DNA from: DATKZS01 sp035527835 [NCBI: bacterium]
Lineage (GTDB): Bacteria; RBG-13-61-14
Assembly (NCBI GenBank): GCA_035527835.1
Contig: DATKZS010000139.1
Coordinates: 1-11,189 of the forward strand
Reading direction: 5' to 3'
DNA length: 11,189 bases
Positions within the stretch are counted from its first letter, which is position 1. Every line of letters starts with the position of its first letter. The notes beneath the pieces are model-generated. The model saw nothing but the letters and a program-made list of their open reading frames with translations, ran no database searches and was not told the origin of the DNA. Shown piece after piece: positions 284 through 5,835 of the stretch. The translations under genes and the position numbers were made by a program.

Positions 284-2818
284 ATGAAAGAAGCAACAGC
301 CCGTATCAAGATCAACAAGCTGCTCGAAGCGGCGGGCTGGCGCTTCTTTCATGAAGGCAACGAGCCCGCCAACATTTGTCTCGAGCCCAGCGTCACTATC
401 AAGTCAACCGACTTGGACGCGCTCGGCGAAAACTTCGAGAAGACCGAAAAAGGGTTCGTCGACTTCCTTCTTCTCGACGCCAAGGGCTTCCCATTGATCG
501 TCCTCGAAGCCAAGGCCGAAGACAAGAATCCGCTCATCGCCAAAGAGCAGGCCCGCAAGTATGCCCGCTCCCAGAACTGCCGATTTATCATCCTCTCCAA
601 CGGGAACCTGCATTATTTTTGGGACCTTGATCGCGGCAACCCCTATGTAATCACCTCGTTTCCAACACCGGAATCGGTCATCGGCTACCAGAAGGTCACG
701 CCCGATCCCCAGCGTCTGCTCACGGAGCCAGTGGGCGATGACTACATCGTTCTCACCCAGCGCCCGAACTACCGGTCCGAGGCCGCGTGGCTAAATGAAG
801 CGGAACGGCCCGGCTACACCCAGGCCAACAAGCTTCGCTTTCTCCGGCCGTATCAGCTCAAGGCCATACTCAGCCTTCAGGCCGCGGTCGGGGAGGGCAA
901 GGACCGTTTCCTGTTCGAGATGGCCACCGGCACCGGAAAGACCCTGACCGCCGCCGCCGTCATCAAGCTATTTCTCCGCTCCGGCAACGCGCGGCGCGTG
1001 TTGTTCCTGGTGGATCGCCTCGAACTGGAGGAACAGGCCAGAAAGGCCTTCACCGCTTCGCTGTCCGCCGACTTTCAGACGGTCATTTACAAGGAGAACC
1101 GGGACGACTGGCGACGCGCCGAGATAGTCGTCACCACGGTTCAATCACTGCTATTCAACAACAAGTACCAGCGGCTCTTCTCGCCGACCGACTTCGACCT
1201 CGTGATCTCGGACGAAGCGCATCGTTCCATCGGCGGCAATGCCCGCGCCGTGTTCGACTATTTCATCGGCTACAAGCTCGGCCTCACCGCCACGCCCCGC
1301 GACTACCTCCGACGGTTTGACGGCTCCAATCCGGCCACCCGCGACCCCCGCGAGGCCGAGCGCCGCTTGCTGCTGGACACCTACCGCACCTTCGGATGCG
1401 AGAATAGCCAGCCGACTTATCGCTATTCCCTGCTCGACGGCGTGAGGGATGGCTACCTGATCAATCCCACCGTCGTGGATGCCCGCACTGCGGTCACCAC
1501 CAAACTGCTGTCCGAGGATGGATTCGTCGCTTCGTTCATTGACGACACCGGCGACGACCACGAGGAGACCTTCAAGCAGCGCGAATTCGAGAAGCGTTTT
1601 TTTTCCGATGCCACCAATCAGGTGTTTTGCAAGACGCTTCTCGAGAACGCTCTGCGCGACCCCATCAGCGGAGAGATCGGCAAATCAATTATTTTTGCCG
1701 TCAGCCAGAACCATGCCTCCAAGTTGACGCAAGTCCTCAATCTGATGGCCGACCGCATGTTCCCGGGCAAGTACCAATCCGACTTCGCCGTGCAAGTCAC
1801 TTCGCAAATACCGGATGCCCAGCAATTCACCATCAACTTCGCCAACAACAACCTTCTCGGCTCATGCAACTTCCTGCCCGCATACAGGACAAGCAAGGCG
1901 CGCGTTTGCGTGACGGTCGGAATGATGACCACCGGCTATGACTGCACCGACATTCTCAACCTCGGCCTTTTCCGGCCCATCTTTTCGCCCACCGACTTCA
2001 TCCAGATCAAGGGGCGCGGCACCCGCAGGCACAACTTCCTGGAGCAGCTTTTTGACGACAGCATCAAAGAAGGCGTCGCCCATCCACGGAAGACCGCATT
2101 CAAGCTCTTGGATTTTTTCGCCAACTGCCAATACTTCGAGGAAGAGTTCAACTACGACGAGGTGCTGAAACTCCCCAAGCCTCAAGGCAAGGGAAGCAAT
2201 GAGGGGGGTGAAACAGGCCCGGTGGTGGCCGGTGGAGTCTACGAGCACCTGGGCGCCGACATCCTCTCCACGATCAAGGAAGAAATTATCGGCTACGAAG
2301 GGATGAAAATAGATCGGATTTTCTTCGAGAGGTTCGAAGACGTGGTTCGCGCCAATGACACTATCGCCAGGGCCGTTGAGGCCGGGCAGTGGGACCGCGT
2401 CATTGACTACATCAACCGCGAGGTCTTCGACAAGCCCGAGGAGTACTACACCCTCGCCAAGCTGCGCAAAGCCGCCGCGGTGGACCGTAGATTGACATTG
2501 CGCGAAATTCTCGAAAAGATCTTCGGCCTCATCCCGCGCTTCAAGTCCAAGGACGAGCTGCTGGAGGAGGAGTTCGCCAAGTTCGTCGCCGACTACAAGC
2601 CCGAAGAGGCCGAGGCTATTCCCGCAATCAAGACCTTCTTCAAGGCTTACGTAACCAGCGACCAGACCCGCCACATCATCGAGAGCCGGCAGTTCACGGA
2701 TCTGGCAACCAATCCGGTATTTTCTACCCGCGAATTCAGGGCGGTCCCGGAAAAATACCGCGCCCTGGTTCCCGAGTACGTCAAGGACTACGTTTCCTTG
2801 AACCACTTCGCCGCATAA
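284..2818 (+). CDS. hsdR: Type I restriction enzyme R subunit (EcoEI-like HsdR)
   Basis: This is the motor and nuclease subunit of a type I restriction complex. It translocates DNA using ATP after the M/S core recognises an unmethylated site, and it cleaves at a distance. The 844-aa protein begins with an HsdR N-terminal nuclease domain whose PD-(D/E)xK residues are visible as D60 and E75-A-K77. The SF2 helicase motor follows: Walker A GTGKT with K219, DEAH box 310-313, motif III LTATP 334-338, and motif VI QIKGRGTRR 574-582. From about residue 600 to the end it resembles the EcoEI/EcoAI-type (family IB) R-subunit C-terminal domain, which contacts the methyltransferase core. All key residues are intact and the length is normal, so the gene looks functional. 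The ATG at 284 is the only sensible start, because the nuclease domain begins at once. An 8-T run lies at 1597-1604. hsdMS follows 133 bp downstream on the same strand. Confidence 0.95.
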   Translation: MKEATARIKINKLLEAAGWRFFHEGNEPANICLEPSVTIKSTDLDALGENFEKTEKGFVDFLLLDAKGFPLIVLEAKAEDKNPLIAKEQARKYARSQNCRFIILSNGNLHYFWDLDRGNPYVITSFPTPESVIGYQKVTPDPQRLLTEPVGDDYIVLTQRPNYRSEAAWLNEAERPGYTQANKLRFLRPYQLKAILSLQAAVGEGKDRFLFEMATGTGKTLTAAAVIKLFLRSGNARRVLFLVDRLELEEQARKAFTASLSADFQTVIYKENRDDWRRAEIVVTTVQSLLFNNKYQRLFSPTDFDLVISDEAHRSIGGNARAVFDYFIGYKLGLTATPRDYLRRFDGSNPATRDPREAERRLLLDTYRTFGCENSQPTYRYSLLDGVRDGYLINPTVVDARTAVTTKLLSEDGFVASFIDDTGDDHEETFKQREFEKRFFSDATNQVFCKTLLENALRDPISGEIGKSIIFAVSQNHASKLTQVLNLMADRMFPGKYQSDFAVQVTSQIPDAQQFTINFANNNLLGSCNFLPAYRTSKARVCVTVGMMTTGYDCTDILNLGLFRPIFSPTDFIQIKGRGTRRHNFLEQLFDDSIKEGVAHPRKTAFKLLDFFANCQYFEEEFNYDEVLKLPKPQGKGSNEGGETGPVVAGGVYEHLGADILSTIKEEIIGYEGMKIDRIFFERFEDVVRANDTIARAVEAGQWDRVIDYINREVFDKPEEYYTLAKLRKAAAVDRRLTLREILEKIFGLIPRFKSKDELLEEEFAKFVADYKPEEAEAIPAIKTFFKAYVTSDQTRHIIESRQFTDLATNPVFSTREFRAVPEKYRALVPEYVKDYVSLNHFAA

Positions 2819-2829
2819 AATTTTGGACT

Positions 2830-2854
2830 GCGGCGGCTTGACGCCGCTTTTCTT
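2830..2854 (+). terminator. Possible rho-independent terminator after hsdR
   Basis: The first hairpin of the array (GCGGCG/CGCCGC stem, 2830-2847) is followed directly by TTTTCTT at 2848-2854 and begins 11 nt after the hsdR stop. This is the layout of an intrinsic terminator. The stem is short (6 bp) but all G/C. If active it would partly uncouple hsdMS from the hsdR promoter. The fourth unit has the same shape on the minus strand (stem 2930-2913, T tract read from 2912 to 2906), so the array could terminate in both directions. Termination is inferred from shape only. Confidence 0.5.
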
Positions 2855-2930
2855 AGCCGGGGCTTGACCCGGCGTTCTTGGAAGACGGGGCGTCAAGCCG
2901 CCCCGAAGAAAAGCGCGGTCAAGCCCGCGC
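2830..2930. repeat. Four-hairpin array with conserved GCTTGA loops
   Basis: The hsdR-hsdMS spacer holds four perfect 6-bp hairpins with 6-nt loops: GCGGCG-GCTTGA-CGCCGC (2830-2847), GCCGGG-GCTTGA-CCCGGC (2856-2873), GGGGCG-TCAAGC-CGCCCC (2887-2904) and GCGCGG-TCAAGC-CCGCGC (2913-2930). TCAAGC is the reverse complement of GCTTGA, so units 3 and 4 are units 1 and 2 in inverted orientation. The stems differ but every change is matched on the other arm. The centres are 26, 31 and 26 bp apart, and the array is symmetrical about 2880/2881, with TTTTCTT after unit 1 mirrored by AAGAAAA before unit 4. The family is not one I can name. It may be a mobile or REP-like element, a set of terminators, or a protein- or RNA-binding structure. 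Confidence 0.9.
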
Positions 2931-2942
2931 ACTCCATAGAAG

Positions 2943-2951: not shown

Positions 2952-5471
2952 ATGCTCGACACCGACACCAAACGCCGCATTGATACCGCCCGCGACATCC
3001 TTGTGGGCAAAGTGCCCGATCCCAAGTCCCAGGTCGAGCAGATCACCATCGCTCTGATCTACAAGTTCATGGATGACATGGACGCCGAGAGCGAGGAGTT
3101 CGGCGGCAAGCGCAAGTTCTTCGCCGGTCAATTCTCCCGCTACGGCTGGGCCAAGCTCATGCGCGCGGGCCTGGGCGGCTTCGAGACCCTGAACCTCTAC
3201 GCCGAGGCCATCACCAAGATGCCGGAGAACCCCGGCATTCCCCCGCTCTTCCGCGACATCTTCAAGAACGCCTATCTGCCCTACCGCGACCCCGAAACCC
3301 TCAAGATGTTCCTCAAGGTCATTGACGAGTTCTCCTATGACCACTCCGAGCGGCTGGGCGATGCCTTCGAGTATCTCCTTTCCGTCCTCGGCTCGCAGGG
3401 CGACGCCGGCCAGTTCCGCACCCCGCGCCACATCATTGATTTCATCGTCGAAATCATTGATCCGAAGAAAACCGATACCTTGCTCGACCCCGCCTGCGGC
3501 ACCGCCGGTTTCCTGATCTCATCCTACAAGCACATCCTCAAGGCCAACACCGACAAGAAGGGCAATAGTAAGCTGACCCCGGATGAGAAAGGCCGACTCG
3601 CCCGGAACTTCAGGGGCTACGACATCTCGCCCGACATGGTGCGCCTCTCCCTGGTGAACCTCTACCTGCACGGCTTCACAGCGCCGAATATCGAGGAATA
3701 TGACACCCTCACCTCGCAGGACAAGTGGAACGAGTACGCAGACGTCATACTCGCCAATCCGCCCTTCATGTCGCCCAAAGGCGGCATCAAGCCGCACAAC
3801 CGCTTTTCCGTGCAGTCCAAGCGCAGCGAAGTCCTGTTCGTGGACTACATGGCCGAGCACCTGACGCCCGGGGGCCGAGCAGGAATCATCGTGCCCGAGG
3901 GCGTCATCTTCCAGGGCCAGAACGCCTACAAAAAACTGCGCAAGATGCTGGTCGAGGACTACCTGGTTGCCGTCGTCTCCCTGCCCGCAGGCGTCTTCAA
4001 TCCCTATTCCGGTGTTAAAACCTCCATCCTCATCCTCGACAAGTCGCTGGCGAAGAAGGCGAACACCATCGCCTTCTTCAAGGTCGAGAACGACGGCTTC
4101 GGCCTCGGCGCCCAGCGCCGCGAGATTGACAAGAACGACCTACCACTGGCGCTTGCCGAGATCTCTGAATATCTCCACCGCCTGCGCGCCCAAGAATCCG
4201 TTGAGGACTTCCAGCTTACCTTCGGGCTGATCGTCCCGAAGGAGAAGATCTCAGCGAATGGCGACTATAACCTGAGCGGAGAGAGGTATCGGGAAGGGGC
4301 AGCTAATTTCTCGACCTTCCCTCTGGTGCGGCTTGAGGAAGTATTCACGAAGATTGGCAACGGCGTAAATGTCACCCAATTCGATGAAAAAGCGAAATAC
4401 CGCGTCTCGCGTATTCAAACCATTGCAGATGGTTCAGTGAATCTCGAAAAGACGAAGTTCACTAACGATGAAGTTAAAGCTGAATCGTTTCTTCAGTCAG
4501 GAGACATCCTCCTCAGTCACATCAATAGCATCGATCATCTAGGCAAGTCCGCCATCTTTCAGGGAGAAGACAACGATGTAATTCACGGAATAAACCTGAT
4601 TCGCTTGGTTGCGGATGTTTCAAGAATCGACCCACACTTCGCCATTAGAATTTTCAAGACTGACCGCTTCATCGACACAGTTAAGTCATTCGCTCAGAAG
4701 GCGGTCAATCAGGCCAGCGTGAAGACCTCCGATTTGCGGGGCATTGAAATCCCCCTGCCGCCTCTGGAGGTGCAGAAGGAGATCGTGGCGGAGATCGAGG
4801 ACTACCAGAAAGTCATCAACGGCGCCCGCGCCGTCCTCGACAACTACCGCCCCCACATCCCCATCAACCCCGACTGGCCGATGGCAGAACTTGGTGAGGT
4901 TTGCGATGTGCGTGACGGCACACACGACAGCCCAAAATATGTCCTTGAGGGCTACCCATTAATCACATCAAAGAACCTGAAGGATGGCTTTATCGATTTT
5001 AGCGACGTGAATCTAATCAGTCGCGAAGACCTCGACGCGATCAACAAACGGTCTAAGGTTGATGCGGGAGATCTTTTGATGCCGATGATCGGCACGATTG
5101 GAAACCCAGTCATTGCCGACGCGTCGCGAGAATTTGCGGTGAAGAATGTCGCCTTGATTAAGTTTCCAAAAGATTGCCAAGTGGACAACCGATTTCTCAA
5201 GTACCTTCTCGACTCGGCAGAAATGCAAAGCCATTTTGATCGTCAAGCCAATGGTTCAACTCAACGGTTCATCCCTTTAGGGTTCATCAGGAAGCTTCAA
5301 ATTCCTCTTCCCTCCCTCGCCACTCAACAAGCCATCGTCGCCGAGATCGAAGCCGAGCAAGCGCTGGTTTACGCCAACCGGGAACTGATCGCGCGCTTCG
5401 AGCAGAAGATCCAGGCCGTCCTCGCCCGCGTCTGGGGCGAGGACTCACCGGCCCCGGCCCCATCATCGTGA
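2952..5471 (+). CDS. Fused type I methyltransferase-specificity protein (HsdM-HsdS)
   Basis: One 839-aa ORF joins what are usually two proteins, HsdM and HsdS. Residues 1-140 form an HsdM N-terminal helical domain. Residues 145-430 form an N6-adenine methyltransferase with GQFRTPRHI (153-161), the AdoMet-binding motif DPACGTAGF (from D179) and catalytic NPPF (269-272). The usual HsdM tail YNLSGERY is at 439-446. After a linker of under 10 residues comes a full HsdS: target recognition domain 1 (about 453-597), conserved helix CR1 starting IPLPPL (600-605), TRD2 (about 643-783) and CR2 starting IPLPSL (784-789). The ORF is continuous through the junction. The TRD coding parts are visibly AT-richer than the HsdM part, a sign of domain exchange. 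The protein should methylate adenine in a bipartite site and, with HsdR, restrict unmodified DNA. The target sequence cannot be read from the protein. Confidence 0.93.
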   Translation: MLDTDTKRRIDTARDILVGKVPDPKSQVEQITIALIYKFMDDMDAESEEFGGKRKFFAGQFSRYGWAKLMRAGLGGFETLNLYAEAITKMPENPGIPPLFRDIFKNAYLPYRDPETLKMFLKVIDEFSYDHSERLGDAFEYLLSVLGSQGDAGQFRTPRHIIDFIVEIIDPKKTDTLLDPACGTAGFLISSYKHILKANTDKKGNSKLTPDEKGRLARNFRGYDISPDMVRLSLVNLYLHGFTAPNIEEYDTLTSQDKWNEYADVILANPPFMSPKGGIKPHNRFSVQSKRSEVLFVDYMAEHLTPGGRAGIIVPEGVIFQGQNAYKKLRKMLVEDYLVAVVSLPAGVFNPYSGVKTSILILDKSLAKKANTIAFFKVENDGFGLGAQRREIDKNDLPLALAEISEYLHRLRAQESVEDFQLTFGLIVPKEKISANGDYNLSGERYREGAANFSTFPLVRLEEVFTKIGNGVNVTQFDEKAKYRVSRIQTIADGSVNLEKTKFTNDEVKAESFLQSGDILLSHINSIDHLGKSAIFQGEDNDVIHGINLIRLVADVSRIDPHFAIRIFKTDRFIDTVKSFAQKAVNQASVKTSDLRGIEIPLPPLEVQKEIVAEIEDYQKVINGARAVLDNYRPHIPINPDWPMAELGEVCDVRDGTHDSPKYVLEGYPLITSKNLKDGFIDFSDVNLISREDLDAINKRSKVDAGDLLMPMIGTIGNPVIADASREFAVKNVALIKFPKDCQVDNRFLKYLLDSAEMQSHFDRQANGSTQRFIPLGFIRKLQIPLPSLATQQAIVAEIEAEQALVYANRELIARFEQKIQAVLARVWGEDSPAPAPSS

Positions 5472-5835
5472 ACGCCCAGATCCCCCATTGCGGGCCCTTG
5501 CTCGCCGAAGAAAAAGGCCGATGGATGGATGACGTTGACCTGTTGCCGGCGTTCACTCTCACCGCCGTGAATCCGCCGTGACCGCGGCGTGACAACATCA
5601 GAACGGGAGCGGGCCTTAAGACCCGCTCCCGTTCCAATTTAATGGCGCCGTCCACCGGCAAGCCCCGCGGCCTCCCGAGACCGCGCAAAGCTCCGAAAGT
5701 TGCCGGAGCGCCCTCTCGCGAACGGGATTGATTTCCCTGCCCTCTGCTGTAGAGTATGATGAACCCTGAAAGGCGGTCATTATATTAATGGCGTGACGCT
5801 TGGGCCCGTTGGCCGGCCGTCGCGGGGAAGGATTT
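5472..5835. other. Gene-free spacer between hsdMS and the MFS gene
   Basis: I see no credible gene here. Short ORFs lack ribosome binding sites and recognisable products. The spacer contains a CGCCGTGA direct repeat (5563-5570 and 5574-5581) and a small CGCCG/CGGCG hairpin just after it. A 13-bp perfect inverted repeat lies at 5601-5634. The AT-richer patch upstream of the transporter includes TTGATT (5728-5733), TAGAGT (5750-5755) and TATATT (5781-5786), which could make a weak promoter. None of these boxes pairs well enough to call with confidence. Confidence 0.6.
5601..5634 (+). terminator. Perfect 13-bp inverted repeat, likely hsdMS terminator
   Basis: GAACGGGAGCGGG (5601-5613) and its exact complement CCCGCTCCCGTTC (5622-5634) flank an 8-nt loop CCTTAAGA, which is itself nearly palindromic. 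The hairpin is very stable and sits 130 nt after the hsdMS stop with no gene between. The trailing T tract is poor (CAATTT at 5635-5640), so the element could instead be a transcript-stabilising hairpin or a repeat element. The minus-strand side has no T tract, which makes + strand action more likely. Confidence 0.55.

What the first reader, a model, noticed from the sequence alone, without database searches (positions are those of the whole stretch)
2830..2930. Four covarying hairpins with an invariant GCTTGA loop arranged as a two-fold symmetrical array
Each of four units has a perfect 6-bp G/C stem around the same hexamer (GCTTGA in units 1-2, TCAAGC in units 3-4). The stems are GCGGCG, GCCGGG, GGGGCG and GCGCGG on the GCTTGA-reading strand. 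Unit 1 and inverted unit 4 differ at only four of 18 positions, and these are two compensating pairs. Unit 2 and inverted unit 3 differ at three compensating pairs. The stem ends are always G...G and C...C. Compensated change in all four copies implies selection on the fold, not the sequence, while the loop is held fixed. The mirrored TTTTCTT/AAGAAAA spacers make the whole 101 bp one large imperfect palindrome that could also extrude as a single cruciform. I know of no named element with this rule. It could be a repeat family spread by a transposase, a binding site for a loop-reading protein, or a bidirectional terminator cassette.
Basis: seen in the sequence. Interest (0 to 1): 0.8.

Follow-up and report, generated by a model that had tools for sequence, protein, structure and literature searches.

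The report
A four-hairpin jumping DNA repeat
The spacer between two restriction-modification genes holds one copy of a short DNA element made of four hairpins, which has spread through the genomes of distantly related bacteria and appears to be moved by a transposase that reads hairpins.

Summary
It is one copy of a dispersed, extragenic palindromic repeat. Each arm has an outer hairpin with a 5' tag (TTTGGAGT or TTTGGACT) and an untagged hairpin 26 nt further on: 82 of 85 same-strand pairs in other genomes keep that spacing. The arms are inverted. Stems change by compensation while the loop GCTTGA is held. The tagged pattern is in 5 of 386 genomes, up to 94 copies, reversed control zero. In four homologous operons hsdR and hsdM lie 9-14 nt apart; here 133 nt, so the array was inserted.

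Hairpins of this family flank a REP-associated tyrosine transposase (RAYT) gene in two genomes; these two RAYTs form one supported clade among 31. I read the element as a REP/REPIN-like, non-autonomous mobile element with GAGT/GACT in place of the known GTAG or CGTC tag and with doubled hairpins per arm. Movement by that enzyme is inferred, not shown. A general terminator role is not supported. The loop is a subfamily trait.

The parts
2822..2829 (+). 5' tag of the outer left hairpin, TTTGGACT (family consensus TTTGGAGT/TTTGGACT)
   Evidence: consensus; the same TTTGGACT flanks the RAYT gene in L051
2830..2847 (+). hairpin 1: GCGGCG-GCTTGA-CGCCGC
   Evidence: covariance-model match 76.9 bits over 2822-2879 (a training row)
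2848..2855 (+). 8-nt linker TTTTCTTA; sets the 26-nt hairpin register
   Evidence: spacing 26 nt in 82 of 85 distinct same-strand pairs in other genomes
2856..2873 (+). hairpin 2 (untagged): GCCGGG-GCTTGA-CCCGGC
2874..2886 (.). middle spacer, 13 nt (66-74 nt in the 14 other complete arrays counted)
2887..2904 (-). hairpin 3 (untagged, inverted): GGGGCG-GCTTGA-CGCCCC on the minus strand
2905..2912 (-). 8-nt linker, TTTTCTTC on the minus strand
2913..2930 (-). hairpin 4 (inverted): GCGCGG-GCTTGA-CCGCGC on the minus strand
   Evidence: the same outer stem as the right-hand hairpin of the G001 copies
2931..2938 (-). 5' tag of the outer right hairpin, TATGGAGT on the minus strand
284..2818 (+). upstream neighbour: type I restriction subunit HsdR (host gene, not part of the element)
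   Evidence: ResIII, HSDR_N
2952..5471 (+). downstream neighbour: fused type I methylase and specificity protein HsdM-HsdS (host gene); GAGGAG at 2942-2947, a likely ribosome site, lies just outside the element
   Evidence: N6_Mtase, Methylase_S

Best explanation
The array is one inserted copy of a non-autonomous, REP/REPIN-like mobile repeat. Each arm has an outer hairpin preceded at its foot by an unpaired tag (GAGT or GACT, in the context TTTGGA[G/C]T) and an inner untagged hairpin in a fixed 26-nt register; the two arms are inverted with the tags outside. Proposed mechanism: a REP-associated tyrosine transposase (HUH/Y1 family) acting in trans binds the tagged hairpins as folded single-stranded DNA, using the tag as the guide that GTAG is in known REPs, and copies or moves the unit into extragenic DNA. 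Here it landed between hsdR and hsdMS. Shown by computation: family membership, copy number in other genomes, register, compensation, extragenic bias, the extra DNA relative to homologous operons, and a RAYT gene flanked by family hairpins in two genomes. Inferred: that this transposase moves this element, single-stranded recognition, the role of the tag as guide, and that the window's own organism has or had such an enzyme.
For: Copies: the tagged pattern is in 5 of 386 genomes (94, 27, 13, 5 and 3 copies), reversed-pattern control 0 in all 386; a sixth genome has 5, and 4 of 4 genomes held of G316's family and phylum are positive. Register: 26 nt in 45 of 48 same-strand pairs within 60 nt and in 82 of 85 distinct exact-loop pairs within 70 nt; 12 background matches in IMG/VR to two GGCTTGAC at free spacing include none at 26. 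Fold: rows chosen by tag and loop only, hairpin 1 inner three pairs 164 of 171 cells paired; hairpin 2, rows chosen by the loop at +26 among the same 72 halves, 161 of 168; 0 of 2000 shuffles reach either. On 33 hand-picked rows 97.7% of 396 cells pair, with 63 double changes. Extragenic: 7 of 40 hairpins lie in crude ORF models, all of 110-140 aa, against 87.5% of random windows. Insertion: spacer 133 nt against 9, 10, 14 and 9 nt in four homologous operons. Enzyme: L051 (genome G002) has a 186-aa ORF matching NCBIfam REP-associated tyrosine transposase (89.9 bits, cut-off 80) and the PDB chain 4er8_A, labelled TnpArep (E 8.7e-6). It is flanked on both sides by inverted TTTGGACT-GCGGCGTC-CGC-GACGCCGC-TTT hairpins. 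L260 (genome G037) has a 51%-identical homologue. Past its 3' end lies an array whose left arm has two GCTTGA hairpins and whose right arm keeps one tagged hairpin with another loop; before its 5' end lies a tagged GCTTGA hairpin. Among 31 RAYT-like ORFs held then, these two alone have tag hairpins within 800 bp, and they form one clade, support 100/100.
Against: No movement was observed, and no genome is held for the window, so copy number and enzyme in its own organism are unknown. 29 of 31 RAYT-like ORFs in held loci are not flanked by the tag. L260 was fetched because its contig carries family hairpins, so its proximity is not a blind test; its gene has one in-frame stop and scores below the NCBIfam cut-off (69.7 against 80). 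L051 is just under Pfam's cut-off (21.5 against 23), and its hairpins share tag and stem foot but not the GCTTGA loop; the model matches there are weak (E 0.0007 and 0.004). The tree has long branches and L260 fills 45% of its columns. No clade member was found in the G316 stretches held, about 0.77 of 2.3 Mb (my sum), although G316 has most copies; the Pfam search would miss this clade (E 0.014 for L260). Several copies in G316, G037 and G001 lie inside longer elements with their own terminal repeats, some with 4-5-bp duplications, which points to a second, DDE-like mover. One naked copy of 27 arrays scanned has an 8-bp direct repeat at its ends, not expected of single-strand transposition. 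For hairpin 2 the number of extra pair types is no higher than in shuffles (7 against 6.6). RNA energy favours arm-to-arm pairing over four hairpins.
Confidence: 0.7

Rival explanations
1. The four-hairpin core is only cargo: it was spread by DDE-type transposition of longer miniature inverted-repeat elements (MITEs), and the window copy has lost the MITE ends.
For: In G316 and G037, and at some G182 sites, cores lie between ends CCCCAATAATCAGATTGA. Of 20 distinct complete end pairs (264-380 bp, with or without the core) 6 have an exact 4-bp target duplication; 4 of these 6 (L099, L117, L171, L176) hold core hairpins. In G001 the ends are CCTAAATCTCCGGCTAA, six complete pairs, three with a 5-bp duplication by eye. 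The same ends also carry other palindromes: L162 and L168 in G182 and L216, L217, L219 in G001 were read, and L162-L168 gave no tagged pair.
Against: Two different kinds of ends carry the same core, and the window and L104:621-789 copies show neither, so the core moves or is kept independently. By eye no autonomous partner, that is no lone pair of ends 1-4 kb apart, in the listed positions (the list was cut for G182 and shows none of G037 and G387; one G182 end, C53:7711, has its nearest inverted end 3.8 kb away in another complete element). L051 shows neither kind of ends; L260 was not in that scan. On the other side: another RAYT, in L058, has a single end-like sequence with 2 mismatches just before it, at a contig edge.
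Confidence: 0.17
2. A bidirectional transcription terminator or RNA-level regulator between hsdR and hsdMS: each outer hairpin is followed by TTTT on its strand and would stop or pause RNA polymerase from either side.
For: Hairpin 1 (+) and hairpin 4 (-) are both in the terminator-like list, each a 6-bp G/C stem followed by TTTTCTT. Compensation would preserve RNA hairpins.
Against: Terminator-like sites in the window number 16, against 10.4 (sd 3.5) in shuffles. The tail is mostly TTT and then variable in other copies. Family copies are not enriched at convergent gene ends (4 of 25, against 42 of 267) and lie between divergent genes in 7 of 25 cases, against 46 of 267. A local effect on hsdMS is still possible as a by-product.
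Confidence: 0.08
3. A double-stranded DNA binding site for a chromosomal protein that reads GGCTTGAC at 26-bp (about 2.5 turns) spacing, unrelated to transposition.
For: Fixed 26-nt register and conserved GCTTGA; extragenic location.
Against: Stems co-vary instead of being constant, which a duplex-reading protein would not require; patchy distribution, 5 of 386 genomes, and extra DNA in a tight operon fit a mobile element; RAYT linkage in two genomes.
Confidence: 0.05

Closest known systems
REP / BIME / REPIN elements with RAYT (TnpA_REP), e.g. E. coli, Pseudomonas, Stenotrophomonas (PMC2817692, PMC3116915, PMC3733652, PMC8266576)
   Same: Short extragenic palindrome with an unpaired tag at the foot; inverted dimers with tags outside (head-head); stems that co-vary; a RAYT gene flanked by the repeats.
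   Different: Tag GAGT/GACT in place of GTAG/GTGG; two tandem hairpins per arm in a 26-nt register, so four per unit; inner hairpins untagged. Some Pseudomonas REPs in PMC2817692 Table 1 have a similar CTTG loop (e.g. GTGGGAGGGGGCTTGCCCCCGAT).
CGTC-tagged REP superfamily (PMC3733652)
   Same: Tagged extragenic hairpins, mainly head-head dimers.
   Different: CGTC stems are 8-9 bp and begin with A-T pairs, loops 4-5 nt, no associated transposase; here 6-bp G/C stems, 6-nt loops, and a RAYT in two genomes.
TIRtrons / TIRYT (PMC3733652; subclass 2.1 in PMC6006769)
   Same: Y1 transposase genes with inverted repeats that also occur as dispersed families, some of them with self-complementary tracts.
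   Different: Their common repeat motif GGGGWSAS is not the tag seen here; the repeats here are tagged hairpins. The figures with their sequences are not held, so individual TIRs could not be compared.
ANTAR dual-hairpin antiterminators (PMC3369931)
   Same: Two small hairpins in tandem with conserved six-nucleotide loops.
   Different: ANTAR loops have A at position 1 and G at position 4; here the loop is GCTTGA (G1, T4), and the linker length is fixed, not variable.

Membership tests
REP/REPIN with RAYT | short palindrome, dispersed in many copies, mainly extragenic | tested here: met
   94, 27, 13, 5, 5 and 3 copies in six genomes; 7 of 40 hairpins in crude ORF models against 87.5% of random windows. 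Not testable for the window's own genome.
REP/REPIN with RAYT | conserved unpaired tetranucleotide GTAG/GTGG at the 5' foot of the hairpin | tested here: not met
   The foot reads GACT and GAGT in the window and GAGT or GACT in TTTGGA[G/C]T elsewhere (there the tag was part of the search).
REP/REPIN with RAYT | inverted dimers, tags outside (head-head) | tested here: met
   window 2822-2938 and 14 other complete arrays; single hairpins also occur.
REP/REPIN with RAYT | a RAYT (HUH/Y1) gene flanked by the repeat | tested here: met
   L051 in G002 and L260 in G037; 2 of 31 RAYT-like ORFs held, one clade 100/100. Met for the family, not shown for the window's organism.
REP/REPIN with RAYT | enzyme cleaves or moves the single-stranded tagged hairpin | not testable with these tools
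   needs biochemistry
CGTC REP superfamily | CGTC tag, 8-9-bp stem, 4-5-nt loop | tested here: not met
   6-bp stems, 6-nt loop, other tag (definition from PMC3733652)
MITE (DDE type) | terminal inverted repeats and target duplication around the unit | tested here: not met
   no such ends or duplication seen in the window; met for several copies in G316, G037 and G001
ANTAR target RNA | hexaloop with A1 and G4 | tested here: not met
   loop GCTTGA; on the other strand TCAAGC (definition from PMC3369931)
Known Rfam family | match at the array | tested here: not met
   no match up to E 1 at 2822-2938
Intrinsic terminator | G/C hairpin then U-run | tested here: inconclusive
   hairpins 1 and 4 fit, but the site count is near the shuffled range and the family context does not favour gene ends

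The most novel reading that the evidence does not exclude
A third tagged class of REP elements beside GTAG and CGTC. Its members carry a GAGT/GACT tag on a GCGGNG...CNCCGC stem, come in loop-defined subfamilies, and one subfamily builds four-hairpin units with a fixed 26-nt register. It has its own RAYT clade, carried across at least two phyla, so that tag, tandem hairpins and enzyme form a matched set.
Probability: 0.5. Interest if true: 0.65.

Novelty: new variant of a known kind. Interest (0 to 1): 0.52.

Why it matters
In PMC3733652, which sorts tagged REPs into two classes, the GTAG class has transposases and the CGTC class has none. A class with another tag, a doubled hairpin and a candidate enzyme would let the coupling between tag, hairpin spacing and RAYT be tested directly, for example by swapping tags and enzymes in vitro. 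It also warns that four-hairpin spacers in environmental genomes can be insertions, not necessarily regulatory sites, and that the curated Pfam model scores this RAYT clade below its cut-off.

Tried and rejected
Local accident: rejected by copies in other genomes and zero controls. Grand cruciform as the selected structure: not favoured. ANTAR target: loop residues do not fit. Known Rfam family: none. Plasmid or phage origin: no plasmid match for the window spacer up to E 1; with a G316 array none of 1019 plasmid and 7 phage records has a place covering 80% of the query and the rows listed cover at most 22%. Y1_Tnp neighbours: 30 loci of G001-G003 and 3 of G316, G182 and G037 first looked negative, because I searched for GCTTGA-like hairpins and, in the first 30, GGAGTGCG or GGGAGTG; the covariance model then found the L051 hairpins, which have another loop. 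My first tagged pattern was mistyped and gave a false zero (corrected from then on). Relatives of the RAYT in IMG/VR: none. The 26-nt tandem form was not seen in IMG/VR with the pattern used. Claims about print rest on the listings of searches, in which I saw no description of this family. One search found 25 papers with matching letters, 20 listed, by their titles mostly primer lists; I opened none. Most subscription papers are not in that library. From memory only, unverified: I associate TTTGGAGTGCGG-type repeats with soil Verrucomicrobia and similar bacteria.

Rows dropped: the rows were limited to exact tag and first loop (57 of 72) or exact second loop (28 of 72). In some searches I hand-picked 33 of the 72 halves in which both hairpins were in register, which favours pairing. 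In one search hairpins within 200 nt of the end of a stretch were left out. In one search I count 20 distinct full-length end pairs, leaving out internal hits and the L175 copy of L134. In one search, 35 distinct hairpins were printed from 29 stretches; L237 and L244 gave none and I did not check why.

Full report
The observation. The four units, their stems, the shared hexamer and the mirrored linkers are as described. Of 14 GCTTGA sites in the window, only these four have stems longer than 2 bp. The spacer folds far better than shuffles on either strand. The energy minimum mixes hairpins with arm-to-arm pairing: -72.9 kcal/mol against -52.2 for the four separate hairpins. Energy alone therefore does not favour four hairpins; the comparative evidence below does.

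Surroundings. The array fills most of the 133-nt gap between hsdR (284-2818) and a fused hsdM-hsdS (2952-5471); an MFS transporter, a response regulator and a large sensor kinase follow. No genome is held for the window. The MFS protein is closest, among 12 loci found, to Deltaproteobacteria bacterium RBG_13_61_14 (73%; L001, genome G001).

Copies elsewhere. Reading them showed that the outer hairpins carry a further conserved flank, and that two copies are near-identical at two different sites. The tagged pattern GGAGTGCGNNGGCTTGACNNCGC is in 5 of 386 genomes sampled around G001: G316 94, G182 27, G037 13, G001 5, G002 3; the reversed control is 0 in all 386. A sixth, G387, has 5; all 4 genomes held of the family and phylum of G316 are positive. 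G001's own phylum has three held genomes, two positive. So at least two phyla carry it, patchily.

Architecture. In these genomes the same four-hairpin plan recurs: tagged hairpin, 8-nt linker, second hairpin, a middle of about 70 nt (13 in the window), then the mirror image. Single hairpins and partial arrays also occur. Start-to-start spacing within an arm is 26 nt in 45 of 48 pairs and in 82 of 85 distinct exact-loop pairs within 70 nt. As a background check, 12 IMG/VR matches to two GGCTTGAC at free spacing contain none at 26. The window's right arm resembles the right arm of the G001 copies, with the same outer stem GCGCGG.

Compensation. With rows chosen only by tag and loop, 164 of 171 cells of the three inner pairs of hairpin 1 are paired (shuffled mean 138.9). 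For hairpin 2, with rows chosen among the same 72 halves by the loop at +26, 161 of 168 cells are paired (shuffled mean 125.8). 0 of 2000 shuffles reach either. The count of extra pair types in hairpin 2 is no better than shuffled. On 33 hand-picked arms, 97.7% of cells pair and 63 cells differ on both sides (shuffled 20.1); slides by 3 columns still pair 67-69%. Relatedness of copies inflates such counts. Over 15 complete arrays, chosen by tag and loops, each own stem is 97-98% paired, hairpin 2 with hairpin 3 is 65%, and hairpin 1 with hairpin 4 is 92%. I infer that the unit of selection is the single hairpin.

Location. 7 of 40 family hairpins fall inside crude ORF models, all of 110-140 aa, against 10499 of 12000 random windows. 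Element spacers are 4 convergent, 7 divergent and 14 codirectional, against 42, 46 and 179 for all spacers over 50 nt. The numbers are small, but they do not suggest a terminator.

Insertion here. HsdM relatives (E up to 1e-60) are in 12 of 241 genomes. In four of them hsdR runs directly into hsdM with 9, 10, 14 and 9 nt between stop and start (L182, L183, L187, L190/L194). In five others (L184-L186, L188, L189) the end of hsdR lies about 0.3-1.2 kb before hsdM, so something else lies between. The last three (L191-L193) are distant (34-43% identity) and show no hsdR end. None of L182-L190 matches the hairpin model. The window spacer less the 111-nt core is 22 nt. The array is therefore most simply an addition to a tight operon.

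The moving enzyme. A covariance model of one arm, run on 75 loci, found weak inverted matches (E 0.0007 and 0.004) on both sides of a Y1-type ORF in L051, from G002. The hairpins there are TTTGGACT-GCGGCGTC-CGC-GACGCCGC-TTT: the tag and stem foot of the window's hairpin 1 with another loop. The ORF matches NCBIfam NF047646, REP-associated tyrosine transposase, above its cut-off, Pfam Y1_Tnp just below its cut-off, and PDB chain 4er8_A, labelled TnpArep. It has the motifs NNHYHF and YVHQNP, which I read as the HUH and tyrosine motifs. A second homologue, 51% identical, lies in L260 (G037). Past its 3' end is an array whose left arm has two GCTTGA hairpins (78.7 bits) and whose right arm keeps one tagged hairpin with another loop (25.1 bits); before its 5' end is a tagged GCTTGA hairpin. 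It scores 69.7 against a cut-off of 80 and has one in-frame stop. Of 31 RAYT-like ORFs held when I searched, these two alone have tag hairpins within 800 bp and they form one clade with support 100/100, in a tree with several long branches. L260 was fetched because of its hairpins; L051 was not, it came from a Pfam search.

Breadth of the tag. A tag-and-stem pattern with free loop hits 29 IMG/VR stretches; of 35 hairpins listed, 4 have GCTTGA and 20 other loops occur, while the tag is GAGT in 31 and GACT in 4. The tag (G or C at one place) and stem foot were fixed by the pattern; the loop was free. Several stretches hold inverted pairs.

Complication. In G316, G037 and some G182 copies the cores sit between ends CCCCAATAATCAGATTGA; 6 of 20 complete end pairs have an exact 4-bp duplication, 4 of them with core hairpins inside. 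In G001 two complete cores and one related pair of tagged hairpins sit between CCTAAATCTCCGGCTAA ends. The same ends also enclose other palindromes. The window copy and L104:621-789 show no such ends. I read this as cores captured by, and riding in, MITEs, but cannot exclude that MITE movement made most copies. One RAYT outside the clade (L058) has a single end-like sequence just before it at a contig edge; I could not follow this.

Comparison. Papers seen: PMC3733652 (abstract, two named sections, passages), PMC6006769, PMC8266576, PMC2817692 and PMC3369931 (passages), PMC12306157 (start of abstract in a listing; a term search in it returned nothing), PMC3116915 (abstract and outline). They give the defining features of REPs used in the membership table. 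The element works like a REP/REPIN and meets copy number, location, head-head order and RAYT linkage, but not the GTAG tag; I therefore call it a variant, not a member of the GTAG class. PMC8266576 states, in the passages read, that changes of the tag are tolerated to different degrees by different TnpA_REP enzymes, so another tag is plausible.

None of these required a change of odds.

Noticed in passing
window 5585-5650: Inverted repeat of two 33-nt arms, 76% complementary, shortly after hsdMS; perhaps the operon's terminator.
   Followed up: no
window 3981-4082 (-): Below-threshold match to the fluoride riboswitch model (25.1 bits, cut-off 34), inside hsdM on the opposite strand; probably chance.
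   Followed up: no
L162, L168 (G182); L216, L217, L219 (G001): MITE ends that elsewhere carry the four-hairpin core here enclose different palindromes, in G001 a GTAGGGGCACGGCATGCCGTGCCCC-type repeat; palindromic cargo seems interchangeable.
   Followed up: partly
L058:1-130 (G001:C68): A single MITE-end-like sequence (2 mismatches) lies just before a RAYT gene of another clade, at the contig edge.
   Followed up: partly
L017:1554-1612 (G001): A GTAG-type inverted pair (GTAGGGGCGCAATT...) lies right beside a lone tagged hairpin, so two REP classes seem to coexist in one genome.
   Followed up: no
L184-L186, L188, L189: In homologous type I operons 0.3-1.2 kb separates hsdR from hsdM, apparently another gene in some (an ORF ending ...VGFIWEDEKK in L184).
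   Followed up: no
G316 contigs, e.g. L102, L103, L105, L106, L122, L123, L131, L136: Many contigs of G316 end inside or next to the element, so its true copy number is probably higher than 94.
   Followed up: partly
L104:621-789: A naked core flanked by an 8-bp direct repeat AATCACTT, unexpected for single-strand transposition.
   Followed up: partly
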